DNA of 64,000 bases from contig DAIDIP010000018.1 in NCBI GenBank assembly GCA_027451745.1, forward strand, positions 1-64,000, written 5' to 3'. The notes beneath the pieces are model-generated. The model did no database searches. It was not told where the DNA came from and worked only from the letters and a program-made list of their open reading frames with translations. A program made the translations under genes and the position numbers. Positions 24,035 to 63,599 of the stretch are shown in pieces (the first letter of the stretch is position 1; each line of letters opens with the position of its first letter). The DNA is from Candidatus Melainabacteria bacterium. Its GTDB lineage: Bacteria; Cyanobacteriota; Vampirovibrionia; Obscuribacterales; Obscuribacteraceae.

Positions 24035-24062
24035 CTCACATGGTTCTCACAATAAACTCACA
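24035..24062 (+). promoter_or_regulatory. Three CTCACA direct repeats at exact 11-bp spacing
   Basis: CTCACA occurs at 24035, 24046 and 24057, that is with one helical turn between units. Direct repeats of this period are the binding-site format of OmpR/PhoB-family response regulators. They lie 103 nt upstream of the CAP-protein ATG. A matching element, including the same TAAGCTCACA decamer, precedes the convergent operon at 31390-31419. The repeats are seen in the sequence; binding of an OmpR-family regulator is inferred. Confidence 0.6.
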
Positions 24063-24165
24063 ATCTTTGTTTAAGCTCTTAGAGTGGCCCAAAGTGTAGC
24101 TACAGCGGGATTTTTCACAAAAATGTTCTCATTTAATAAGCTCAAGATAGACAAAAGTGGGTTTT

Positions 24166-25137
24166 ATGTCCGATTCGCCCAAGAATAATCCAGAATCTCC
24201 AATTGCTGTATCTGCTGCTTTGGCGAAAATGCAGGCTGATTCGGGCGTGCCTGCTAAATCTACATCGGATTCTGCTTTTAAAAGCTTTCTTAGCACAAGT
24301 ACAACTTTAACTACTTTTATCGATGGGGTTAATCGTCCATCTATTGAGGGAATGTCTAAAAACTCTAATTCTGGTGCTCTGCAGGATGTTTTTAGCAATA
24401 ACAATACAAGAAGCGCATCATCTTTTGCTACTCAGCTAGAGGCACAGTTAAGAGATGAAAATCGAGGACAAATTCAAGTTCCTAATGTTTACAACCAGGT
24501 GGACAATAGATATCAACCAGTATCAAGAACAGAAATAACAACTGGTACGCCAGCTCAAACATTGTCGGGCAATATTGCAAAGCCAGAAGTTCAGATTGCG
24601 AAGGTTGAACACGTTAACCGACCAATTACATTTGCGCCGATCCAAAGACCTAAACCAGTAGACACAAAGCGGACGGACAATAAATCAGAAACTGAAAAAG
24701 TTGAGGGTAAGGAGAAAGATAAAGACTCCTCTTCAAAATCCGACTATGAAAAATGGAAAGAAACACATAAAGGTAAATTGACCGAGTTTGAAAGTAAGTT
24801 TGCTTATTTGGTGGATGATTTCAGAGCTAATCCAACGAAATATAAAAGCTGGTACGGGGCCGCCAATAAACGTACCAAACCTGTGCGTGACCTCAAACCT
24901 TCAGACCGTATGAGCGAGGATGCTAGTATCAATACAAAAAGGATGGCAAGTAGAGGTGTTGGCCATTGGGGTCCGTCTGGAAATGAAATTGCGTCTGTGG
25001 GTGCCACAACTCCTGAAGGAGCCTTAAAGCAATTTCTGAATTCGCCAGATCATCGAGAAATAATGGAAGGAAGTAACTTTAGACGGTTTGGTGTTTCTAA
25101 AATTGGTAGTCGGCTAACAATGCGCTTTTCGTCGTAA
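24166..25137 (+). CDS. CAP/SCP-domain protein with disordered N-terminal module
   Basis: A 323-aa protein. Residues 1-200 are Ser/Asn/Lys-rich and probably unstructured. The C-terminal part (about 210-323) reads as a CAP (SCP/PR-1) domain: a helix with LVDDFRANP, H267 in GVGHWG, GNEIASVG, and SPDHREIM with H296 before a final beta strand. CAP domains are usually extracellular, yet there is no signal peptide. The ATG at 24166 is preferred over GTG 24157 because it aligns with the paralogous start of the next gene. The first ~170 residues resemble the next protein (SPIAVSAALA/SPVAVSPAVA, SFATQLEAQLR/SFARQLEANLR, ITFAPIQR/ITFAPIVR). First gene of a three-gene operon. Confidence 0.75.
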   Translation: MSDSPKNNPESPIAVSAALAKMQADSGVPAKSTSDSAFKSFLSTSTTLTTFIDGVNRPSIEGMSKNSNSGALQDVFSNNNTRSASSFATQLEAQLRDENRGQIQVPNVYNQVDNRYQPVSRTEITTGTPAQTLSGNIAKPEVQIAKVEHVNRPITFAPIQRPKPVDTKRTDNKSETEKVEGKEKDKDSSSKSDYEKWKETHKGKLTEFESKFAYLVDDFRANPTKYKSWYGAANKRTKPVRDLKPSDRMSEDASINTKRMASRGVGHWGPSGNEIASVGATTPEGALKQFLNSPDHREIMEGSNFRRFGVSKIGSRLTMRFSS

Positions 25138-25157
25138 ATATCAACAGAGTGGTTAGG

Positions 25158-26216
25158 ATGACTGAAATAAATAAAGACAAACATGATTCTCCAGTAGCAG
25201 TATCGCCTGCTGTGGCTGAAGCTCATGGTCTTTTATTGAAAAAAGGTCCTAATAGTGGACGTTTTTCGAGCGCAAAAATGTTTGGTGCTGCTATCTCTAC
25301 CCTCACAACAGCTTTTGATGGAGCTAATCCTCTCCAAGTAGAAGAGTCTTCGCAAGCAGAAGTTGGATTGAAAAATACAGTCCCGCCCAGCAGCTCTGCA
25401 AGCTCAAGCTTTGGTCGAGATGGTAATGGCAGTCCGAGGAGTTCTTCGAGCTTTGCTAGACAGTTAGAAGCTAATTTGCGAAATAATGAAATAGGCATTG
25501 CAAATGTCCCTAAACCAATTGAGCGGTCACAAATTGTAACTGAAAAACAATCTGGACAGGTGAAAAATGTTGATCAGTCAAATCAACCGTCTCAACCAGG
25601 TAATACTGCTCCGAGGAGAGAAATAACCTTTGCACCAATAGTAAGAGCTCCTGAAAAAGTGCTGGTTAAGCCCAACGATAAAAACTCAAACAAAGACACT
25701 AAAGCTCTTGATGTGGAACGAGAAAAAAAGTTACCTGAGATTCGTAAAGTGTCTACAGTAGCCGATATCGAAAAAGCGCGAGAGGAAGCAGCCAGATTGG
25801 GTGTTCCTTTAGTGGTTAAATTTGGAGCTAGTTGGTGTGGACCTTGCAACAATTTGAATCGCGATGTTTTTTCTGGACTTGAAAAAAATGATAAATCATC
25901 CGCTGTTTTTGCTCATATTGATATAGATAAAACACCTGATGGTGGACGTGCTATTGCTAAAGCTTTGGGTATAGAAAAAGATGGAGGGGTACCTCAAGTA
26001 AATGTTTTAGCTATTAATAAAGCTACCAATAAGTTTACTGAGGTGTTCCATAGAAGTGGCTATGGTGGAAATGGCTCGCAATATAAATCAGCTCTTGTGA
26101 GCAAATTGAATCTTTTGCCAGCAGAATATGTGGTAGCGCATAGACAAGAAATTCTTGAGGGGCTGAAAGGAAAATCCAGTCCGACTCCTAACGGCAACAA
26201 TAGACGCAGACGTTAA
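25158..26216 (+). CDS. Thioredoxin-fold protein with disordered N-terminal module
   Basis: A 352-aa protein. The N-terminal ~165 residues form the same low-complexity module as the preceding CAP protein. A thioredoxin-like domain follows at about 200-325, with VVKFGASWCGPC containing the redox pair Cys227 and Cys230 and a cis-Pro in GGVPQVNVL. It is a thiol-disulfide reductase or isomerase candidate. The C-terminus ends in a basic NNRRRR tail. The ATG at 25158 lies 20 nt after the previous stop. The shared leader suggests both proteins go to the same place or bind the same partner, with swapped C-terminal payloads. Function beyond thiol chemistry is unknown. Confidence 0.8.
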   Translation: MTEINKDKHDSPVAVSPAVAEAHGLLLKKGPNSGRFSSAKMFGAAISTLTTAFDGANPLQVEESSQAEVGLKNTVPPSSSASSSFGRDGNGSPRSSSSFARQLEANLRNNEIGIANVPKPIERSQIVTEKQSGQVKNVDQSNQPSQPGNTAPRREITFAPIVRAPEKVLVKPNDKNSNKDTKALDVEREKKLPEIRKVSTVADIEKAREEAARLGVPLVVKFGASWCGPCNNLNRDVFSGLEKNDKSSAVFAHIDIDKTPDGGRAIAKALGIEKDGGVPQVNVLAINKATNKFTEVFHRSGYGGNGSQYKSALVSKLNLLPAEYVVAHRQEILEGLKGKSSPTPNGNNRRRR

Positions 26217-26228
26217 TAATGGTGCATT

Positions 26229-28610
26229 ATGGGTGACATAGACAATCAAAAAGTAAGTGATAAGCATAGTCGACTTAATGATTCGGATCGTGGTGGTAGC
26301 GGCAAACCAGATGAGACAAATGCACTTTTAATTGAGGCTAATAGGTTGCGTGATCGTCAACAGCAAGGGCATAAGCCACTGGAACTTGCTTTTAATGAAC
26401 CTCAGCATCAGCAAGATACAACTGCGAAGACTAAGCCAAGCCAAAGTGATGTACAAGGTAATATGCGTAACGCGGTTGGAGCTTATGTGAAAACCGATGC
26501 TTCTGGTAATGTTGAATTTTTGCATCGTAAGGACAATTCACGCATTACCCCACAGTGGGAAATTGATCAACAAGGACAAAAGACGCGGATGCTAGGCTTT
26601 GAAGAAACTAGCGCTGGTGGTAAAGCGAGCCGCATGTGGACTCGTGAAGGGGATAAATTTGTTTGTTCTGGGACTGACGGCAAGAAAGAAACATTACAAG
26701 GCATGGAATTTGATAAAACAAATAATGGCAATATTAAATATGTCAAGGATGGACAAACTTTTACTGTGAGAGGAAATGGAGAGGTTTTACCAACAGGACC
26801 TAATAATCCAACTTATGGTTTTGATGAGCAGGGGCGTATTACAACTGTTACACCTACATTGGATGATTGGAATAAAGGTGCTGCGTCAATGGCTTTTTCG
26901 TATGCAGATGCTAAAAGTGAAAAATTGGCTACTGTATCAGAGTTAAGAAAAGGTACAAGAGTTACTAATCATCAAGCAGTTGCTGGAGAAACTATTACTG
27001 CTAGGGGTGACTATGAGCGTTCAGCATCAATTAAATTACCGGCCAAGGATAAGGATGGCAATACAAAAATTACTGAATTGAAAGTTACTAGGACTCATTA
27101 TGCCGGCACTACAGATGACTTTGATAAACAAGTTAGTGAACCTTTTAAAAATAAAGAGGATAAAGAAGTATCTAAAGCTATATTCGATGGCAAAAATAAT
27201 TTTATTGGTGTGCAAGCACTGGATAGAAATGGCAAAGTATCTAAGGAATATCGCAAAGATGCAAGCGGCAATGTCACTGAGCTTGATTTTGCAAACAAAG
27301 ATGTAACGCTCTGGAGCAGAGGAGCAAATAATATTTTTACTGGTAAAAAAGTGCAAGAAAATGGTGTGACTGTAGATAAGCCGGTAGGTATGCGAGGGAA
27401 TTTTGAATTTAATAACGAGGCTACCACTAGTTATATAGACGAAAAAGGCAGAAGGCATGTTGAGTATGCTAGTGGCAAGAAAGAAAGTCTTGAGATATTG
27501 CCTGATCCAAGTAAAACTTCAGAAAAAAATAAAACATCTGAATTACCGTCATATGTAATAAAGGATGAAAATGGGCGAATTTTAAAATCTGGCATGATCA
27601 CAAATAACGGTCCTGATTTAAATAATTATCTTTCTTATAAGTATTCGGACGAAAAGACAGCCGATGGTAAAGCAATTGTGACTGGCGTAGATATGACTTA
27701 TAAAGGAAAGACCAAAAATGTTTGGTCTTCTGACATAGCAAAAGAAGCAAAAATACTTCCAGATGGACAATTGGAATATAAGGCTAGTGACACGCAAAGA
27801 GTGGTTGTTAAGCCTGATTTGAGTATTAGCAAATTTGATAAGGCAACTGACGGTGGTCCTGATTTACTGACCGAAAAAAGTTTTCCAGATGGTTCAGTAC
27901 GTACGATTAATTACGGAGAGCCACCCAATCGTTGTCACCCGCAGTCTATTTCCAGTAAAACAAGTCTTCCTAATGGTGAATCTATTACAAGAACTTTTAA
28001 TGCGGAGCCTGTGGATGAAAAATCCCAAACACAATACCCGTTGAAAGCCTGGGCTTTAAGCGAAGAAAAATTTTCAGCGGACGGAACGAAAATAGAAGAT
28101 GGTAAACCAAAATCCCCAGCCATTTGCTTGGAAGTTTTTGATAATGGGGATTTTGAAGCAACATCCAATACGCCGTCAAATAAAAACAGGTATTTATTCC
28201 CCGCACGAGGCATGAATACTTTTCCTGATGGTGTACCGGTTCCTCCGCCTGGTCCAGATGGGCGCTTAGCCAGAGCCATTCAAGCGTTTGATTCCCTCTA
28301 TTCTGAAAGTCAATTGAAAAAAGATCTTGAAACTTTGCCAGAACAAAGTAGCGTGAACGGTGTTGTGGTAATTAAAAAATATGCAGCAAAATCACCTGAA
28401 TTGGTTACCGAATTGGGGCAAAAGCATTTGGCAAAACTTTTGCAAGACGAATTAAAAATTACTGCTACCGAACCACCTCCTCCGCAAAATAATTTGGGCC
28501 CACAGAAATTGTTTGAGATTGCTGCCGCCATGGCCTATGAGCGCGAATTAGGTGCTGCTTTGCTCGAGGGCAAAAAAGAATTGGATCGACTAAGAGCTGG
28601 CAAAAAGTAA
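26229..28610 (+). CDS. Large Rhs/YD-repeat-like protein
   Basis: A 793-aa hydrophilic protein rich in Asp, Gly, Lys and Asn. Residues 1-80 are Gln/Ser-rich and probably disordered. From about 85 to 640 there are repeated short beta-hairpin-like units of the form DxxGNVxxL, DEQGRITTV, DEKGRRHVEYASGKKE and DENGRILKSG, resembling degenerate Rhs/YD repeats that build beta shells. The C-terminal ~120 residues are helical and lack a recognisable toxin domain. No signal peptide is seen. It starts 12 nt after the thioredoxin-fold gene, so it is the third gene of that operon. It may be a shell, scaffold or adhesin; the exact family is not recognised. Confidence 0.65.
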   Translation: MGDIDNQKVSDKHSRLNDSDRGGSGKPDETNALLIEANRLRDRQQQGHKPLELAFNEPQHQQDTTAKTKPSQSDVQGNMRNAVGAYVKTDASGNVEFLHRKDNSRITPQWEIDQQGQKTRMLGFEETSAGGKASRMWTREGDKFVCSGTDGKKETLQGMEFDKTNNGNIKYVKDGQTFTVRGNGEVLPTGPNNPTYGFDEQGRITTVTPTLDDWNKGAASMAFSYADAKSEKLATVSELRKGTRVTNHQAVAGETITARGDYERSASIKLPAKDKDGNTKITELKVTRTHYAGTTDDFDKQVSEPFKNKEDKEVSKAIFDGKNNFIGVQALDRNGKVSKEYRKDASGNVTELDFANKDVTLWSRGANNIFTGKKVQENGVTVDKPVGMRGNFEFNNEATTSYIDEKGRRHVEYASGKKESLEILPDPSKTSEKNKTSELPSYVIKDENGRILKSGMITNNGPDLNNYLSYKYSDEKTADGKAIVTGVDMTYKGKTKNVWSSDIAKEAKILPDGQLEYKASDTQRVVVKPDLSISKFDKATDGGPDLLTEKSFPDGSVRTINYGEPPNRCHPQSISSKTSLPNGESITRTFNAEPVDEKSQTQYPLKAWALSEEKFSADGTKIEDGKPKSPAICLEVFDNGDFEATSNTPSNKNRYLFPARGMNTFPDGVPVPPPGPDGRLARAIQAFDSLYSESQLKKDLETLPEQSSVNGVVVIKKYAAKSPELVTELGQKHLAKLLQDELKITATEPPPPQNNLGPQKLFEIAAAMAYERELGAALLEGKKELDRLRAGKK

Positions 28611-28656
28611 GAAGTGAAAGAGTCGGACAAATCATGATACTGCCCATTACGTTGGT

Positions 28657-29931
28657 TTAACCAATTGTTTTCCAAGCGCCTTCTCTAAACCCGCTCCAAG
28701 TATTATCTTGTTTTTCTTGTAAGACTAGCTTTCCATTTTGTCTTATTACTCTAGCAATACTTGTTTGACAGTGAGCACCGCCCATGGTGATATCCAAATC
28801 TGCGCCATTAGAAACTGTTTTACCATCGCTCCATACCGCATGAACTTTATCACGGGTTAATCTTTTGATGCCTTTTCCTAAGTTAACAGCGTCAGTACCG
28901 CCATAGCTTTTATCTAAATGTTTCAATTTATAAGTGCATCTGAGTGCCGCTGTACCTAGCATATGTGAAGTTCTATCTTGACCTGAAGCGGCATTCATAT
29001 CGAAATTATCAAAATGGCCACGATATTCTCTAGTTCTTATAAGTTTACTGCCAACACGTGCTAATTCTTGAGGAGCTTTAGTTGCTGTATAAATGAGACC
29101 AGCATGTAGGGCACAAGAACCGATTTGTCCTTGATTGAGTTTATGCGTTGGATCGCTAACAGCTTTTATTAACCCAACAAGTCTCGAATTAACCTCGTGT
29201 TGATTGTATCCAGATTGTTTGTATGCATCGGGGCTAGCTATTACTTTAGTGTATTGATTTATACAGTCAGCCATATTTTTATCAGAAACATATTGCACTT
29301 TTTTATTATGCAACTTTGAATATTCAGCTTTATTATGATTAGCTGTAATCATCATGTTGATATATTTTTCAGCGGTGTGAACATCACCACCATGTGCTTT
29401 GAATTTTGTTAAAAAGTCTTCTTTAGCTGTTTGAAGATCTGTACTATAGCCATTAATGCGGTCAATTATTCTGGCAAATTTAATTTCTTTGTCAGAATAG
29501 AATTTAATTTCTTTGGGTGCATTTTGCGAAGGGTCGCCGTATTTTGGAATATCGCGGCTGAGTCTTTCAGTATTTTCCATTCCGCCATATTTGGGAATAT
29601 TTTGATTGAGCAATTTAGCATATAAATTTTCTTTGGATGTATCTCCATAAGGACTAGTCATGGATAGCGATTTAAGTGTTGGGTATGCTGTTTCTAGGGA
29701 AGGATTATTGTAAAGAGCAGAAATAGCATCTCCTGGCTGACTTGATCTGGCCAAAGAGGTGCTCGAGTCTTCCCAAGCACCCTTTGTATTATTGTTATTA
29801 GGACCAGATAATTCTCCTACTGCTTGTTCTTGAAGTATTTTAGTGCTTGATGATGCGTCAGAGCTATTAGAACGATCATTGCTGTCGTTGCGTTTTATTG
29901 GCTTATCTGTAACTCTATCGCTCCCAGGCAT
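28657..29931 (-). CDS. Calpain-like cysteine protease candidate
   Basis: A 424-aa protein. Residues 1-150 are Ser/Asn-rich and disordered. The C-terminal half has QGQIGSC at 267-273 followed by ALHAG, which resembles the active-site motif QGxxGxC of calpain-type papain-fold proteases. His387 in GGAHCQTS and Asn410 in EKQDNTW lie where the His and Asn of the triad would be expected. I infer a possible cysteine protease with Cys273; overall similarity is short. There is no signal peptide. An AAAGGAGG sequence lies upstream of the ATG. It is the second gene of the minus-strand operon, 42 nt after the EF-hand gene, and converges on the Rhs-like gene. Confidence 0.6.
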   Translation of the reverse strand: MPGSDRVTDKPIKRNDSNDRSNSSDASSSTKILQEQAVGELSGPNNNNTKGAWEDSSTSLARSSQPGDAISALYNNPSLETAYPTLKSLSMTSPYGDTSKENLYAKLLNQNIPKYGGMENTERLSRDIPKYGDPSQNAPKEIKFYSDKEIKFARIIDRINGYSTDLQTAKEDFLTKFKAHGGDVHTAEKYINMMITANHNKAEYSKLHNKKVQYVSDKNMADCINQYTKVIASPDAYKQSGYNQHEVNSRLVGLIKAVSDPTHKLNQGQIGSCALHAGLIYTATKAPQELARVGSKLIRTREYRGHFDNFDMNAASGQDRTSHMLGTAALRCTYKLKHLDKSYGGTDAVNLGKGIKRLTRDKVHAVWSDGKTVSNGADLDITMGGAHCQTSIARVIRQNGKLVLQEKQDNTWSGFREGAWKTIG

Positions 29932-29973
29932 TTAACCTTCATCCTCCTTTAAAAGCAGTTGGATACTGTGATA

Positions 29974-31269
29974 CTAGAACGAATGTCTGCCATTAACCAA
30001 TCTATTTAGAATAGGTTTGATTTTGGCCTGGAGTGCTTGTTCTTCTGCAGCAGATTTTGGTGCAGAGTCATTGGCATTAATGCCAGCAGCTTTCAATTCT
30101 TGAGAAATAACGAGATTCTTGATAGCAGTTTGAGCGCCGTTATTGAAGACACTGTTTACATGAGACGATTGAGCATTATCTCCTTGTTGTACTAGTGTAT
30201 CTAAATTGCTCATTCCTTGAACATTGCTCAAGCTTTTCTTGAAATCAGCCATTCCTGGATCATCTCCAATTCTGCTGTTTAACTCTTCTTGTGCTTTACC
30301 ATAATTTGGATCGTTTTCCATTTCTTTTTGCATTGCTGCTGCTTCCTCAGCATCTATTTTGCCATCTCCATTTTTATCAGCATTAGCCGCATATCTGGAA
30401 TAGAGACCTTGCATCATCGAACCTTGCCATACATTGATAGCATAATTAGCAAAGTTGGCGTTATTCATGCCGCCATTATGATCAAGTTGGTTCGCGGTGT
30501 AATCATGAGCAGTTATGACTGAAGATTGTTCTTGAGGGTTATTATTGACCTCGGTGTTAGGATCATTGTTTTCACCGCTGTCTCCATTTTCATTTCCTTC
30601 TTCTTTTTCATCATCGGCTGGGTCGCCACCGCCACCTCCGCCGCCGCGACCACCACCGCCACAATTAGGTGCATTGTCTTCAGGCTCGTCTCCACTATTC
30701 TCAGAAGGATCATCATCTGAATCCGATGCGGAATTAGATTTGGTAGTTAATGCTTTAACCACATCTTCTGATACATTAAAAGTAGCTTTTTTACCAATTT
30801 GCGATGGTATTTTGCCTTGTTCTGCTTCTTGTTTGGCTAAACTAAGCTCGTTGCGAATATTATTTGGATCAGCTTTTGCAGCTTCATCAACCCAAACTCT
30901 GCATTGACCGTTTTCAATTGCTTTACCGGTCCATTCGTGCTTACCATCTTTATTAATGATCAAATTGGCTTCGCTTTCACTAGAAGCTGAGGTCATTGTC
31001 AATTTAGGTATTTCGGCTTGAGCATCACCTTGAAGAGCACTAGTAGCTGCGACTGCTCCTGCATCTCCGCTAGAGAAAGTCAATCCTCCGTCGCTTACGC
31101 TGCCGGCAGGAAATCCTCCGCCTACTGGGCTAAAAACTGCTCCACCACTAAATCCTCCACTGCTCCAAACTTGTTGGGCCGCTGCTTGCTCGAAGCCTCC
31201 TGTTGAGAAACCTTGACTTGCTCCTGCGTCTCCACCTGCTCTTGCTGCTCCTGGTGCATCTCCGGCCAT
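29974..31269 (-). CDS. EF-hand protein with Gly-rich and acidic low-complexity regions
   Basis: A 431-aa protein of unknown function. Residues 1-80 are Gly/Ala/Ser/Phe-rich. Residues about 180-250 are an acidic and glycine-rich linker that includes a poly-Gly tract at 204-215. A canonical EF-hand loop spans 298-309 (Asp298, Asn300, Asp302, Gly303, Ile305, Asp306, Glu309), so Ca2+ binding is expected. The remainder is helical. No signal peptide is present. A good AGGAGA ribosome-binding site precedes the ATG. It is the first gene of the operon that ends with the protease candidate, and the operator copy lies 120 nt upstream. A calcium-responsive partner of the protease is conceivable but only inferred. 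Confidence 0.7.
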   Translation of the reverse strand: MAGDAPGAARAGGDAGASQGFSTGGFEQAAAQQVWSSGGFSGGAVFSPVGGGFPAGSVSDGGLTFSSGDAGAVAATSALQGDAQAEIPKLTMTSASSESEANLIINKDGKHEWTGKAIENGQCRVWVDEAAKADPNNIRNELSLAKQEAEQGKIPSQIGKKATFNVSEDVVKALTTKSNSASDSDDDPSENSGDEPEDNAPNCGGGGRGGGGGGGDPADDEKEEGNENGDSGENNDPNTEVNNNPQEQSSVITAHDYTANQLDHNGGMNNANFANYAINVWQGSMMQGLYSRYAANADKNGDGKIDAEEAAAMQKEMENDPNYGKAQEELNSRIGDDPGMADFKKSLSNVQGMSNLDTLVQQGDNAQSSHVNSVFNNGAQTAIKNLVISQELKAAGINANDSAPKSAAEEQALQAKIKPILNRLVNGRHSF

Positions 31270-31389
31270 GATATGTATCTCCTGTTAATTTAATATATTG
31301 GTAATTACTTTGAATTTTCTGAGGCTTTTGCTCTCGTTTATAAAAAAGTCTGAATGTTTCTCTGGAACTGACTTGCGACTGTAATATCG

Positions 31390-31417
31390 TATGAAAACTT
31401 TGTGAGATAGTTGTGAG
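31390..31417 (-). promoter_or_regulatory. Second copy of the 11-bp-period CTCACA operator
   Basis: On the minus strand the units are CTCACA (31417-31412), CTCACA (31406-31401) and a degenerate TTCATA (31395-31390), again with 11-bp period and again led by TAAG. The element lies 120 nt upstream of the EF-hand gene ATG, close to the 103 nt seen for the matching element at 24035. AT-rich sequence (CGATATTACAG) follows and may hold the -10 region. Confidence 0.58.
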
Positions 31418-40631: not shown

Positions 40632-40818
40632 TGGTTAGTTTACCGGCTGGTGCTTTTGCTATGTTGGACACTTTGCGTATTCAGGTGCAAGGTGAGCTCA
40701 ATCGCCACAAGCTAATGAAGGCTGGTTTACATCTAAGCTAAATTGTTGCTGCTCGCCTAAAAGAATTGGATGATATGAAAGCCAGATTAAACGCGGTTGG
40801 CAGCACTAAGCTGAGATA
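40632..40818 (+). pseudogene. Possible second coding relic (plus strand)
   Basis: One plus frame reads SLPAGAFAMLDTLRIQVQGE and LNRHKLMKAGLHLS, then a TAA, then AARLKELDDMKARLNAVG to a TAG at 40816. It overlaps the 3' end of the histidine kinase gene. The helical pattern faintly resembles the C-terminal helices of TolC-family proteins, but the match is too short to name. It may instead be chance reading of non-coding sequence. Confidence 0.25.
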
Positions 40819-42055
40819 GTTTACTTTCTTTATCTGACGCAATTGGCAATGTAATAAAAAAGGTACTGCCTTTATTGGGAGAACTTTCTGCTCGCACATT
40901 TCCGTTGTGGACTTCCACTATAGCTTTAACTATAGATAAACCTAAACCAGTGCCACCGTCTTTTTTGGACCTTGCCTGATCTACTCTATAAAAACGATCA
41001 AAAATTCGAGACAAGCTTTTTATTGGTATGCCGCAACCAGTATCACGAATTGCTATACAAACGCCATTATCATTTCTGAACCCATAAACATATATATGTC
41101 CATCTGCACCGGTATAGTGCAATGCATTTTCAATCACATTACTAAAGACTTCAATTAGCGAATCGGGATCAGCAAGTACGGTTACATCCGGCAGATTGTA
41201 TATTTGTAAATCTACTCCTTGTCCTTGAGCTTTCTGGGAAAAATCGTGAACCACGTCTGTCACCAAATGTGCCAGATTTACAGGAATAAAGTGCATGGAT
41301 ATGCTAGGCTGTTCCATTTTTGCCAACAACAAGAGTCTTTGCGCCAAATTTTTTAGTGTGCTGCTTGCTCTTTGTATTATTCGCAGCACATCGGTTGGTA
41401 ATTGTTTTTCTTGTAGCTCCGCCTCAATTGTTTGAATACTATTCTCTATTAAGGCTACTGGTGTATTCAACTCATGACCAGCATCATCAATGAACGTACG
41501 CAATGTATCCAGAGATTTGACAATAGGAGCCACCGCTCTGCCAGAATAAAACCACCCAAACACTGCCAAAAGCAAGACTAACGGTATGCCACGGATAAGT
41601 TGATCTGAGATAAACGCAGATGTGATCTGGTCAATCGACTGGAAGGACAATTGTGTTTGCACAAAGCAACCGGCCGGTAAATTAATATAATGAGAATAGA
41701 CAGACAAGCGACCATTGTCGTCAACACCATCGATTCTGCCATTCACTAATTTTTTTATTCCGGCTGGACCATAGGACTCAAACATTGTTTTATCAGCACC
41801 AAAAAGTTGAATCGTATTTTCGTATGGAATATTTCTTTCAATCGCAACATGCATCCAGTTTGATAGTGTAGGTTTTCCATCTACATAATCAACCGCTGGA
41901 GCAATACTTTCACAAATATGTCTAAGATTATTTTCTGTCGAAGAGATAAGACGGTTATTTAACATCCAGTAAGCAGCTGATGCATCCAAAATATAGGCTG
42001 CTATAACCAAAAAAATAAACCACAAAGTTAGCCTAATACGAAGGCGATTAATCAT
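40787..42055 (-). CDS. Sensor histidine kinase
   Basis: Membrane sensor kinase of 422 aa. Seen: TM1 at about residues 9-31, a periplasmic sensor region of about 120 residues, TM2 at about 155-171, a HisKA box with GHELNTP and phospho-acceptor His194, an N box (IENALHY), a G1 box DTGCGIP, an F region (FDRFYRVDQ) and a G2 box GGTGLGLSIVKA. It overlaps the response-regulator gene by 4 nt and is translated after it. The stimulus is unknown. The HELNTP variant of the H box (Asn for Arg) is slightly unusual. Confidence 0.94.
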   Translation of the reverse strand: MINRLRIRLTLWFIFLVIAAYILDASAAYWMLNNRLISSTENNLRHICESIAPAVDYVDGKPTLSNWMHVAIERNIPYENTIQLFGADKTMFESYGPAGIKKLVNGRIDGVDDNGRLSVYSHYINLPAGCFVQTQLSFQSIDQITSAFISDQLIRGIPLVLLLAVFGWFYSGRAVAPIVKSLDTLRTFIDDAGHELNTPVALIENSIQTIEAELQEKQLPTDVLRIIQRASSTLKNLAQRLLLLAKMEQPSISMHFIPVNLAHLVTDVVHDFSQKAQGQGVDLQIYNLPDVTVLADPDSLIEVFSNVIENALHYTGADGHIYVYGFRNDNGVCIAIRDTGCGIPIKSLSRIFDRFYRVDQARSKKDGGTGLGLSIVKAIVEVHNGNVRAESSPNKGSTFFITLPIASDKESKLSQLSAANRV

Positions 42056-42777
42056 GAGAGTGCTGTTACCAAAGATTCAGGAGGATCAAAACGATACCCA
42101 AAACCATAGATGCTGGCAATAAAAGAAGGTTTACCAGGTGCGTCTAGTTTACGCCTCAATCTATTAATATGACCACGTACTGTGTCGTGCATAGCTTCGC
42201 TCTCAAGTCCCCAAACATAATCTAATAAATCTTTAGAACAGAACACTTGTTTGGGATGTCTTATTAGGAACTCCAATAATTGAAATTCTTTTGGCGCTAG
42301 ATGTATGGGCTTATTTGACTTAGTTACTCTATGCTCAGCAAAATAAATACAAACATCGTCCATGACATAATATTCATTATTGGTAATTCTGCCACGCCGC
42401 AACAATGCATTTATCCGAGCAGATAATTCTTTTAAGTGAAAGGGCTTTGTTAAATAGTCATCCGCGCCAACTCTAAAAGCAATGTCTTTATCATCAATTG
42501 AGCCACGCGCTGTTAACATTAATATCGGCGTATCACCAGCTTGTTCACGATATGCCTGACAAATCTCAATGCCACTGCAGCCTGGAAGCATAATATCTAA
42601 AATAATGACTTCATGTTGATGCTTATTAACCCTGAGATAAGCCAGCGCTTCATCTCCATCGGTAATAACATCAACACTATGTTCTTGTCTCTTAAGCCAA
42701 TTGCTCACTAGATGCACCATATCTGGCTCATCTTCAACGAGCAAGACTTTAGCTACGTTACTTTTGCCTAAGTTCAT
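42052..42777 (-). CDS. OmpR/PhoB-family response regulator
   Basis: Response regulator of 241 aa from the ATG at 42777; an in-frame TTG at 42816 would add 13 residues ahead of the conserved VLLVEDEPDM start. Receiver domain: acidic pair in VEDEPD, phospho-acceptor Asp61 in IILDIMLPG, LTARG, and KPF with the conserved Lys. The C-terminal winged-helix domain contains LAPKEFQLLEFLIRH and VRGHINRLRRKLD. It pairs with the adjacent kinase. Members of this family bind tandem direct repeats of about 11 bp, so it is one of two candidates in this window for the CTCACA and CTTACA arrays. Confidence 0.94.
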   Translation of the reverse strand: MNLGKSNVAKVLLVEDEPDMVHLVSNWLKRQEHSVDVITDGDEALAYLRVNKHQHEVIILDIMLPGCSGIEICQAYREQAGDTPILMLTARGSIDDKDIAFRVGADDYLTKPFHLKELSARINALLRRGRITNNEYYVMDDVCIYFAEHRVTKSNKPIHLAPKEFQLLEFLIRHPKQVFCSKDLLDYVWGLESEAMHDTVRGHINRLRRKLDAPGKPSFIASIYGFGYRFDPPESLVTALS

Positions 42778-42996
42778 AAATGTATGCCATTCTTTTATCA
42801 ATTTAAGCGATATCAATACGCTTTTGAGTATAGATCAATTTATTAGCGAAAGAACACCTATTTCAATATGTAAAGGGGGGGTAACCTTATAGCAACTTCA
42901 TCTACTATATATGAGCTAAATAATAGAATTCCTAAATACGAAAACCAAGCGGTCTGTCTTATGGTACAAATTTAACAGCATTAAAAGGGTAAAAAA

Positions 42997-58520: not shown

Positions 58521-58561
58521 AAAACAAAAATACCACCTAGATCAAGTCTACGGTGGTATTT
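58521..58561 (-). terminator. Rho-independent terminator of a minus-strand transcript
   Basis: On the minus strand, stem AAATACCACC / GGTGGTATTT (58561-58552 and 58537-58528) with a 14-nt loop is followed by TTTTTGTTTT. It ends the putative ncRNA at 58526-58735 and immediately precedes the lipoprotein gene. Confidence 0.85.
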
Positions 58562-58735
58562 AAGCTACTGTCTGACTGCCCCTTGCGACATGGGCTCAGT
58601 ATTTTCATATGCTTCAGTCAGTCCTTCACATATGACGGGATTTTGCTACAGTTTCTGGTTAGCGCCAACCTAGTGTTTCCACTTATCCCCTCGGCTCATA
58701 GTTCTTAACTGTTTTGTAAGAACTCACCGCTTATG
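58526..58735 (-). ncRNA. Putative structured non-coding RNA
   Basis: A region of about 200 nt without open frame and with dense pairing. Visible elements, minus strand 5' to 3': a closing TAAGC (58733-58729) that pairs with GCTTA (58565-58561); a hairpin AGTTCTTA/TAAGAACT (arms 58724-58717 and 58707-58700); AGTG-GAAA-CACT with a GNRA-type loop; GGTT/AACC; CTGACTG/CAGTCAG; then the terminator. TATACT at 58746-58741 is a -10 candidate; no good -35. A TGAGCCGA word recalls 6S RNA, but identity is unproven. It may be a 6S-like RNA, another small RNA, or a leader of the lipoprotein gene. Confidence 0.5.
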
Positions 58736-61500: not shown

Positions 61501-62934
61501 TTACTTGCTGATACTTACAGGAAAACGAACATTAGTTATCGTTCCTATTCCATTTTCACCGGTATCTATCCACACCTTGGCATCATGAGCCTGCACAATT
61601 TCTTTAACTATGGCTAAGCCCAAACCACTGCCTGGAACATTATTTCCTAAAACTCTATAAAACCTTTCAAATACTTTTTCTCTTTCAGGCAGTGGTATGC
61701 CAGGTCCATTATCTTCAACTGATAGATCAACAGCATTGAGAGATTTTGCCTGCTCCTCAGATGCATCAATCACAGCCAATTTGACAGTTACTTTGCCACC
61801 AGGCTGGGTATAGCGAATGGCATTATCTACTAAATTAGTTACTAACTCGCGAATACTACTTTTATCGCCTTTAACTATCGCAGCTTCCTCACAACCTTCA
61901 AAACCCAGATCAATATCTTTGCTCACTGCAGCAGGAACAAGATCTGAGGTGGCTTCCTTTATAACCGGATTAAGATCAACATCAGTTTGTTTAATAAGCC
62001 ACGCACTGGCTGGTTCTAACTTAGCTAATGAAAGTAATTGATTCACTAGGCGTGTAACGTTATCAACGCTATTATTTACTTGCTTAAGAATGTTCCCTAA
62101 ATCGCTTTTGTCTTCAGATCTGATCCCCAATTCAATTTGTGTTTTGAGACCAGCTAACGGCGTACGTAATTGATGAGCCGCATTAGCAACAAAACGGTGT
62201 TGAGACTCTATATCTTCATTTAATCGGGTTAGCAAATCATCAATTGCTGATACAAGTGGCTGAATTTCGACAGGAGCTCTCACTTCTTTTACCGGTCGCA
62301 AATCCCATGGATTTCGTTTAGCAATTGCTTGTCGAACAGATTCTAAAGGAGCCAAACCCCGAGCAACACCAAACCAAATAGCAAAAGTGGCTAAACTAAT
62401 AACACATAGTTGGGGAACAACAACTGCCCCTAAAATTTCATTGATCAATGCCTGTCTTTTTAACACTGTCTCAGCTACATATATGGTCGCTTTTCTGTTT
62501 GGCTGATCAGGAACAGCCGTTCGCATACATGCAATACGAACATCTGTATGATTTATTCTGCCATCGTAAAAGCGACTGATGCCTCGAAAGGGCTTCGTAA
62601 GAAGGCGGCTGACTGATGGGAAAAAATCGGCATCTCCGCCTATAAGTTTGCCCTGATCATCAAAAGCAAGATAGTAAGACTTATCTACCTTGTCCTCTTT
62701 AAAGATCTCCAAAGCAGCTGGAGGCAAATCTAAAACAATCTGTCCTTCTTCTATCCGCAAACGATTGGCTAATTCTCGCGCACTTTCTGAAAGCGCAGCA
62801 TCATAGGCATCAGTTGTAATTTGGATAGCAATAATATAACTAACTATTCCACTAACCAAACACAAGGTAAAAATTGGAATTAGCAACCAACCTAATAGTT
62901 GTTTTCTTATTGAACTTGTGTTTTTTTTCTTCAC
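61501..62934 (-). CDS. Sensor histidine kinase, QseC/TctE-like
   Basis: Membrane kinase (477 aa). Seen: TM1 at about residues 13-37, a periplasmic region of about 130 residues, TM2 at about 166-189, a HAMP-like linker, the H box HRFVANAAHQLRTPLAG with His254, N box (VDNAIRYTQPGG), G1 DNGPGIP, F box (FERFYR) and G2 GSGLGLAIVKE. Layout is that of QseC, PmrB and TctE kinases; the signal is unknown. The gene overlaps its response regulator by 4 nt. No gene lies between it and the aminotransferase. Confidence 0.95.
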   Translation of the reverse strand: MKKKNTSSIRKQLLGWLLIPIFTLCLVSGIVSYIIAIQITTDAYDAALSESARELANRLRIEEGQIVLDLPPAALEIFKEDKVDKSYYLAFDDQGKLIGGDADFFPSVSRLLTKPFRGISRFYDGRINHTDVRIACMRTAVPDQPNRKATIYVAETVLKRQALINEILGAVVVPQLCVISLATFAIWFGVARGLAPLESVRQAIAKRNPWDLRPVKEVRAPVEIQPLVSAIDDLLTRLNEDIESQHRFVANAAHQLRTPLAGLKTQIELGIRSEDKSDLGNILKQVNNSVDNVTRLVNQLLSLAKLEPASAWLIKQTDVDLNPVIKEATSDLVPAAVSKDIDLGFEGCEEAAIVKGDKSSIRELVTNLVDNAIRYTQPGGKVTVKLAVIDASEEQAKSLNAVDLSVEDNGPGIPLPEREKVFERFYRVLGNNVPGSGLGLAIVKEIVQAHDAKVWIDTGENGIGTITNVRFPVSISK

Positions 62935-63599
62935 GATGTAACGTCTAATAAATAGCCTAATCCACGAATAGTACGAATACTTACACCAGCTATTTCAAGT
63001 TTTTTTCTTAAACGGTGAATATTAACTTCGATTGCATTATGACTAACATCTTCATCCCAGTTATACATATGCTCAATTAATTGCTCTTTGCTAATAACTT
63101 TGCCAGAACGCAACATCAAAAATTCTAAAAGAGCTAATTCTTTAGCAAATAACTCTAATGGCACCCCGTTTACAAAAGCACGATGCCCTGCCACATCAAA
63201 TTTTAATTGTCCCAGCACTAGTTCGTCTTCTTTTACTTGACTAGTGCGTCGCAGCAAAGCTCTCACTCTTGCCTCTAATTCCGGTAAATCAAATGGTTTA
63301 GTTATGTAATCATCTGCCCCCAAATCTAAGCCATGCACACGGTCATTGAGTCCATCTCTAGCAGTTACTATTAATATGGGTACAACTTTATTTTGTGTCC
63401 GAACACTTTGTAAAACTCTTAGTCCATCAAGCTTGGGCAATCCAAGATCCAATATAAGCAAATCATACTCAGACTTCAAAGCAGCCTGCTGTGCGGTCAT
63501 ACCGTCACCATAAACTTCTACAGCATAGCCACGCTGTTGCAGGGCCTTAGAAATACCATCTGACAAAACTGCATCATCTTCTGCAAGTAAAATGTTCAT
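62931..63599 (-). CDS. OmpR-family response regulator, QseB/PmrA-like
   Basis: Response regulator of 222 aa, typical length for the QseB/TctD/PmrA group. Seen: receiver domain with AEDD at residues 6-9, phospho-acceptor Asp51 in LILDLGLP, VTARDGLNDRV, and Lys in TKPFDLPEL. The winged-helix domain has FAKELALLEFLM and HNAIEVNIHRLRKKLE. It is co-translated with the kinase downstream. PmrA-type members bind CTTAAG-N5-CTTAAG, so the CTTACA array at 61330-61367 is a natural candidate target. A dispersed repeat copy fills the leader directly upstream. Confidence 0.95.
   Translation of the reverse strand: MNILLAEDDAVLSDGISKALQQRGYAVEVYGDGMTAQQAALKSEYDLLILDLGLPKLDGLRVLQSVRTQNKVVPILIVTARDGLNDRVHGLDLGADDYITKPFDLPELEARVRALLRRTSQVKEDELVLGQLKFDVAGHRAFVNGVPLELFAKELALLEFLMLRSGKVISKEQLIEHMYNWDEDVSHNAIEVNIHRLRKKLEIAGVSIRTIRGLGYLLDVTS

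What the first reader, a model, noticed from the sequence alone, without database searches (positions are those of the whole stretch)
24035..31417. Unusual five-gene locus: two convergent operons under a shared operator
Seen: a plus-strand operon (CAP domain, thioredoxin fold, Rhs/YD-like) and a minus-strand operon (EF-hand protein, calpain-like protease candidate) converge with a 46-nt gap, and both are preceded by the same direct-repeat element at 103 and 120 nt from the first ATG. All proteins begin with Ser/Asn/Gly-rich disordered stretches and lack signal peptides. Known: CAP, calpain and EF-hand modules often act in secreted or calcium-linked contexts. Inferred: these genes form one co-regulated system, perhaps a calcium-responsive protease with a shell-like Rhs protein and redox/CAP effectors. 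I know of no described system with this set.
Basis: partly seen in the sequence, partly recalled or inferred. Interest (0 to 1): 0.72.

Follow-up and report, generated by a model that had tools for sequence, protein, structure and literature searches.

The report
Shared promoter driving modular protease genes
Two gene clusters in an uncultured, non-photosynthetic relative of cyanobacteria are switched by the same promoter element, which recurs across its whole family and often drives large modular proteins, several carrying a papain-like protease, so the locus is one part of an undescribed, probably two-component-controlled gene network and not a self-contained five-gene system.

Summary
Five genes lie in two convergent operons (46-nt gap), with the same direct repeat before each. 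The repeat is CTCACA-N5-CTCACA. In 9 of 15 genomic dyads found without asking for it, a TAnnnT -10 box starts exactly 15 bp after the second copy begins, the layout of an OmpR/PhoB-type activator site.

The element is a family-wide promoter: 114 hits in 36 genomes of one Obscuribacterales family versus 4 for the reversed control, and none in 24 genomes of other families. It precedes large Ser/Asn/Gly-rich proteins without signal peptides, orthologous genes in three genera, and Tad-pilus-like genes.

The minus operon is a conserved pair: a partner protein (431 aa) plus a papain-like cysteine protease (424 aa; Cys273-His387-Asn410), found together in related loci wherever the contig shows it, often beside a two-component system. 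The plus operon is mostly specific to this genome; its CAP and thioredoxin proteins share a duplicated N-terminus. Relatives fuse the 793-aa Rhs-like module to the protease or to CAP.

The calcium idea fails: the EF-hand is not conserved. "Five genes, one system" is only partly right. Regulator, export route and targets are unknown.

The parts
24035..24062 (+). operator of the plus operon: three CTCACA copies at 11-bp steps
24072..24077 (+). inferred -10 box TAAGCT, 15 bp after the start of the last CTCACA
24157..25137 (+). CAP-domain protein, 326 aa (ATG at 24166); N-terminal ~170 aa homologous to the next gene's
25149..26216 (+). thioredoxin-fold protein, 355 aa, CGPC at residues 230-233, same N-terminal module
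26229..28610 (+). 793-aa Rhs/YD-like protein; region ~65-264 recurs in modular proteins of the family
28657..29931 (-). 424-aa papain/calpain-like cysteine protease: Gln267, Cys273, His387, Asn410
29974..31269 (-). 431-aa partner protein of the protease (Gly/Asp-rich middle, helical C-terminus; single EF-hand-like loop near 297-309 not shared by relatives)
31386..31391 (-). inferred -10 box TACGAT of the minus operon (also TACGAT in G020)
31401..31417 (-). operator of the minus operon: two exact CTCACA copies; weak third copy TTCATA at 31390-31395

Best explanation
The two operons belong to a lineage-specific regulon of Obscuribacterales. A response regulator of the OmpR/PhoB type binds CTCACA-N5-CTCACA direct repeats in place of a -35 box, 9 bp upstream of a TAnnnT -10 box, and activates transcription. 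The promoter element is shown; the kind of protein that binds it is inferred. The genes encode modular proteins with low-complexity N-termini, Rhs/YD-like beta modules and, in many members, a C-terminal papain-like cysteine protease (shown by sequence). The conserved unit in the window is the partner + protease pair; the CAP/thioredoxin/Rhs-like operon is a recent addition beside it under the same control. I infer that the proteins act at or outside the cell surface as protease-armed effectors or surface-remodelling factors, leaving by a route without a cleavable signal peptide, with the 431-aa partner as dedicated cofactor, chaperone or inhibitor. Step confidences: promoter element 0.95; OmpR/PhoB-type regulator 0.8; papain-like protease 0.85; partner works with the protease 0.8; surface or exported role 0.4.
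For: Promoter: 114 vs 4 control hits in 36 family genomes, 0 vs 3 in 24 others; TAnnnT at one fixed offset in 9 of 15 dyads found without requiring it; footprints conserved with orthologous genes: a methyltransferase in three genomes, the 571/689-aa protease-domain protein in two species, the partner operon here and in G020. Regulator type: 11-bp direct repeats replacing the -35 box match the pho-box layout (PMC4971064); same-subfamily response regulators lie within 5 kb of 9 of 72 sites, some directly upstream, and beside the protease pair in six loci and G012. Protease: Gln/Cys/His/Asn in order in all complete relatives; models built without the window sequence hit 424 aa at E 1.4e-17 and 431 aa at 2.4e-8; a relative modelled at pLDDT 72 puts Cys at the start of a helix and His/Asn on following strands. 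Modules: protease core in regulon members of other genera; 793-like module in proteins with the protease core or CAP.
Against: No binding or expression data exist. Most relatives' partner/protease pair lacks this operator, so its co-regulation is shown only here and in one other genus. Downstream genes in other genera are heterogeneous, so several paralogous regulators may share similar sites. No export system is linked to these proteins: the VirB4 genes found look like conjugative elements. The Foldseek search returned the beta region, not a papain fold.
Confidence: 0.55

Rival explanations
1. The regulon is an intracellular stress or housekeeping response: the proteins lack signal peptides because they stay in the cytoplasm, where the protease and its partner act in regulated proteolysis.
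For: No signal peptide or membrane helix in any of the five proteins; the CAP protein has no Cys and the thioredoxin-like protein only its CGPC pair; the best conserved regulon gene is a methyltransferase; bacterial calpain homologues vary in architecture and only some are secreted or membrane-associated (PMC4631099).
Against: CAP and Rhs-like modules are mostly extracytoplasmic in known proteins (own knowledge); the same element precedes TadG-like pilus genes in four genomes and proteins with signal peptides.
Confidence: 0.3
2. They are polymorphic-toxin-like effectors: Rhs-like carrier plus papain-like toxin domain, with the partner as immunity or adaptor protein, used against neighbouring cells.
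For: RHS_repeat in relatives, C-terminal papain-like domains, papain-like toxin domains on RHS carriers are known (PMC3482391), variable C-terminal domain behind a shared N-terminus in the CAP/thioredoxin genes.
Against: The partner is long, Gly-rich and upstream of the protease, unlike typical immunity genes; no delivery system is linked to the loci; the Rhs-like module is short and the window's 793-aa protein has no recognisable catalytic domain.
Confidence: 0.25
3. One reading: a calcium-responsive protease system of exactly these five genes.
For: Canonical-looking EF-hand loop in the 431-aa protein; protease motif.
Against: EF-hand below Pfam cut-off and absent from all relatives of the partner; gene set not conserved.
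Confidence: 0.05
4. The operator is the Pho box of this lineage and the genes belong to the phosphate-starvation response.
For: Same 11-bp direct-repeat layout as the pho box.
Against: No PBP_like_2 (PstS-type) gene in this genome, while the control search finds it in 13 of 14 known genomes; no phosphate gene noticed next to a site in this genome.
Confidence: 0.05

Closest known systems
OmpR/PhoB-family response regulator promoters (pho box)
   Same: Tandem direct repeats at 11-bp period that take the place of the -35 box close to a sigma70-type -10 box
   Different: Different half-site (CTCACA), different gene set, no PstS-type gene in the genome; found in this family and not in the other families of the class examined
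Bacterial calpains (peptidase C2) and papain-like clan CA peptidases
   Same: Gln-Cys-His-Asn order, Cys at the start of a helix, multidomain architecture
   Different: No match to any curated C2 profile; weak matches are to C10 and C39; N-terminal Rhs/YD-like region and helical linker in relatives; conserved upstream partner protein
Rhs/YD polymorphic toxin proteins with papain-like domains
   Same: YD/RHS-type repeats followed by a papain-like domain, modular swapping of C-terminal domains
   Different: No known delivery marker, no clear immunity gene, low-complexity N-termini, placed under a shared two-component-type promoter
EF-hand / calcium-regulated calpain
   Same: One EF-hand-like loop in the partner protein of this genome
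   Different: Not conserved in relatives; no second EF-hand

Membership tests
OmpR/PhoB-type activator promoter | tandem direct repeats at one helical turn (11 bp) | tested here: met
OmpR/PhoB-type activator promoter | fixed short distance to a -10 box, no -35 box | tested here: met
   TAnnnT at offset 15 in 9 of 15 dyads
OmpR/PhoB-type activator promoter | bound by a phosphorylated response regulator | not testable with these tools
   adjacent regulators only
Pho regulon | controls Pst phosphate transport | tested here: not met
   no PBP_like_2 (PF12849) match in the genome
Calpain, peptidase family C2 | Cys-His-Asn triad with upstream Gln | tested here: met
   window and complete relatives
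Calpain, peptidase family C2 | match to a curated Peptidase_C2 profile | tested here: not met
   only sub-threshold C10 and StiP; 793-like relatives C39_2
Calpain, peptidase family C2 | calcium dependence (protease-core sites, EF-hands) | tested here: inconclusive
   EF-hand in partner not conserved; core sites not examined
Papain-like fold (clan CA) | Cys at N-terminus of a helix, His and Asn on later strands | tested here: met
   model of relative L119, pLDDT 72; window's own model too poor
Papain-like fold (clan CA) | structural match to a solved papain-like enzyme | tested here: inconclusive
   Foldseek hits only the beta region; no meaningful sequence hit in PDB
Rhs/YD repeat proteins | RHS/YD repeats above curated cut-off | tested here: inconclusive
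   window 793 aa below cut-off; 5 of 8 family members match at E<=0.1, best E 2.3e-16
Polymorphic toxin system | immunity gene directly after the toxin gene | tested here: inconclusive
   conserved partner lies upstream; no constant small gene downstream
Polymorphic toxin system | dedicated export or delivery system | tested here: inconclusive
   only VirB4 looked for; two conjugation-type T4SS loci found, not linked to these genes
EF-hand calcium protein | EF-hand above cut-off and conserved in orthologues | tested here: not met
   16.8 vs 25.4 bits; 1 of 15 members

The most novel reading that the evidence does not exclude
A whole bacterial family runs an undescribed, two-component-controlled arsenal of modular Rhs-like/papain-like-protease proteins, exported without signal peptides and with dedicated partner proteins, with dozens of paralogous response regulators sharing one type of operator.
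Probability: 0.25. Interest if true: 0.75.

Novelty: new variant of a known kind. Interest (0 to 1): 0.5.

Why it matters
It gives a readable regulatory code for Obscuribacterales, non-photosynthetic relatives of cyanobacteria that are almost unknown physiologically, and links many large proteins with no annotation to one promoter. It also adds a protease family with a conserved partner to the sparse record of calpain/papain-like enzymes in bacteria, and makes specific predictions that can be tested in laboratory hosts.

Tried and rejected
Calcium-responsive system: rejected, EF-hand not conserved. Pho regulon: rejected, no PstS-type gene. Anti-phage defence: no PADLOC match. T4SS effectors: VirB4 genes belong to conjugation-type loci with ArdC-like and integrase-like neighbours (gene calls read by eye). 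Finding the regulator by phylogenetic profile: the regulator subfamily is in all 60 genomes, in many copies in most of this family, so uninformative. Idea that the 793-aa C-terminus is the protease linker without its catalytic domain: profile-profile alignment hinted at it, direct tests did not support it; dropped. Structure of the window's 424-aa protein: pLDDT 44, unusable. Literature searches for Obscuribacter with two-component/response regulator, and Obscuribacterales with calpain, returned nothing.

Full report
What is there. The window is part of a 3.0-Mb, 96% complete genome bin. Its closest named relatives in the public collection are Candidatus Obscuribacterales/Obscuribacter metagenome bins, a non-photosynthetic branch near cyanobacteria.

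The operator is a promoter element, and it is not private to this locus. CTCACA-N5-CTCACA occurs seven times exactly and eight more times with one mismatch in the genome, against 2 for the reversed pattern. In these 15 dyads, found without asking for anything downstream, TAnnnT starts 15 bp after the start of the second copy in 9 cases; no other offset has more than 2. The plus promoter carries three copies at 11-bp steps, the last one correctly placed to its -10 box. With the -10 box included, the pattern gives 10 hits in this genome and 104 in 35 relatives of the same family, against 4 for the reversed control, and none in 24 genomes of other families of the class (control 3). This is the layout of the pho box, which in E. 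coli sits near the -10 box in place of the -35 box (PMC4971064). I infer an OmpR/PhoB-type response regulator. That subfamily is hugely expanded here: 14 copies in this genome, and 47, the number scored, in many relatives. In 9 of 72 sites examined a member lies within 5 kb, in some cases directly upstream of the site.

What the element controls. In this genome: a 1029/516-aa operon, a 387/1158/2504-aa operon, and genes of 142, 1321, 264, 262+1169, 571 and 1160 aa, besides the two window operons. Most begin with Ser/Asn/Gln/Pro-rich stretches, and none of the large ones has a Pfam match except the 1160-aa protein (CAP). Three promoters are conserved with their orthologous genes: the 264-aa methyltransferase in this genome, G001 and G020; the 571/689-aa protein in two species; and the partner/protease operon here and in G020:C66, where even the -10 sequence TACGAT is the same. 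In other genera the downstream genes are more mixed and include TadG-like pilus genes in four genomes.

The minus operon is a conserved pair. A scan of one genome per species for the 424-aa family returned 18 Obscuribacterales loci and one short match in Archangium. Wherever the contig reaches, the partner lies directly upstream. Models built without the window sequences recover the window's 424-aa protein at E 1.4e-17 and the 431-aa protein at 2.4e-8. The position also looks old: the pair sits near carB-deoC-TPR in G020 and near ychF in three other loci, the two flanks it has in the window. In six loci the next gene is a response regulator, with a histidine kinase close by; in G012 a divergent regulator, a 793-like protein, the partner, the protease and a histidine kinase stand in a row.

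The protease. Asn-Gln-Gly-x-x-Gly-[Ser/Thr]-Cys, Gly-(x)-His and Asn-x-Trp appear in this order in the window protein (Gln267, Cys273, His387, Asn410) and in all complete relatives. A relative modelled with fair confidence has Cys at the start of a helix and His and Asn on later strands, as papain-like enzymes have. No curated calpain profile matches; the weak matches are to C10, StiP and C39. I therefore call it papain-like (clan CA), similar to calpain, not a calpain. The protease core also occurs in regulon members elsewhere: this genome's 571-aa protein, 2614-, 844- and 689-aa proteins of G001, and proteins in G024, G007, G033 and G015.

The plus operon. The CAP and thioredoxin proteins share about 170 N-terminal residues, found nowhere else in 36 genomes beyond one marginal hit: most simply a recent tandem duplication with different C-terminal domains. 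The 793-aa protein shares its ~65-264 region with modular proteins: this genome's CAP-bearing 1160-aa protein, G001's 2614-aa protein with a C-terminal protease core, and others. Such fusions argue that the Rhs-like, CAP and protease parts act in one process. RHS_repeat is significant in relatives.

What it does. Shown: the promoter element, the pair, the catalytic motif, the modular build. Inferred: control by a response regulator; action at or beyond the cell surface, because CAP and Rhs-like modules and Tad-like genes point there. The missing signal peptides leave an intracellular role open. The only secretion marker tested, VirB4, leads to two conjugation-type loci elsewhere in the genome. 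Calcium control is not supported.

Limits. All genomes are draft bins; G001, the only same-genus relative, is 71% complete, so absences there mean little. Site counts use one fixed pattern. Annotation of neighbours such as carB, deoC and Tad genes is partly by recognition of familiar sequences by eye. No expression data were available.

Noticed in passing
window 58561-58700 (-): Rfam poplar-1 RNA (RF03041), 127.8 bits against a gathering score of 110.5: a full-length match to this RNA family.
   Followed up: no
window 40787-42816 (-) and 61501-63599 (-): Two further response regulator + histidine kinase pairs related to the subfamily proposed to bind the operator.
   Followed up: no
L033 (G000:C10:1-20000): A stretch of very large unannotated proteins (1029, 516, 387, 1158, 2504 aa) under CTCACA-type sites, next to a transposase-like ORF at the contig edge.
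   Followed up: partly
L139, L143, L155, L156 (G026, G011): CTCACA-type sites precede short proteins or N-termini with LPKLKxLKN or VGG-type motifs that look like peptide-leader sequences.
   Followed up: no
L079, L089, L127, L151: The same promoter element precedes TadG-like membrane proteins in four genomes (identification by eye).
   Followed up: partly
L169, L171 (G000:C1): Two near-duplicate conjugation-type T4SS modules with ArdC-like genes in one genome.
   Followed up: partly
whole genome G000: No PBP_like_2 (PstS-type) protein found in a 96% complete genome, although 13 of 14 control genomes have one.
   Followed up: no
relatives of family f1: Extreme expansion of one OmpR-type response regulator subfamily, at least 47 copies in many genomes.
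   Followed up: partly
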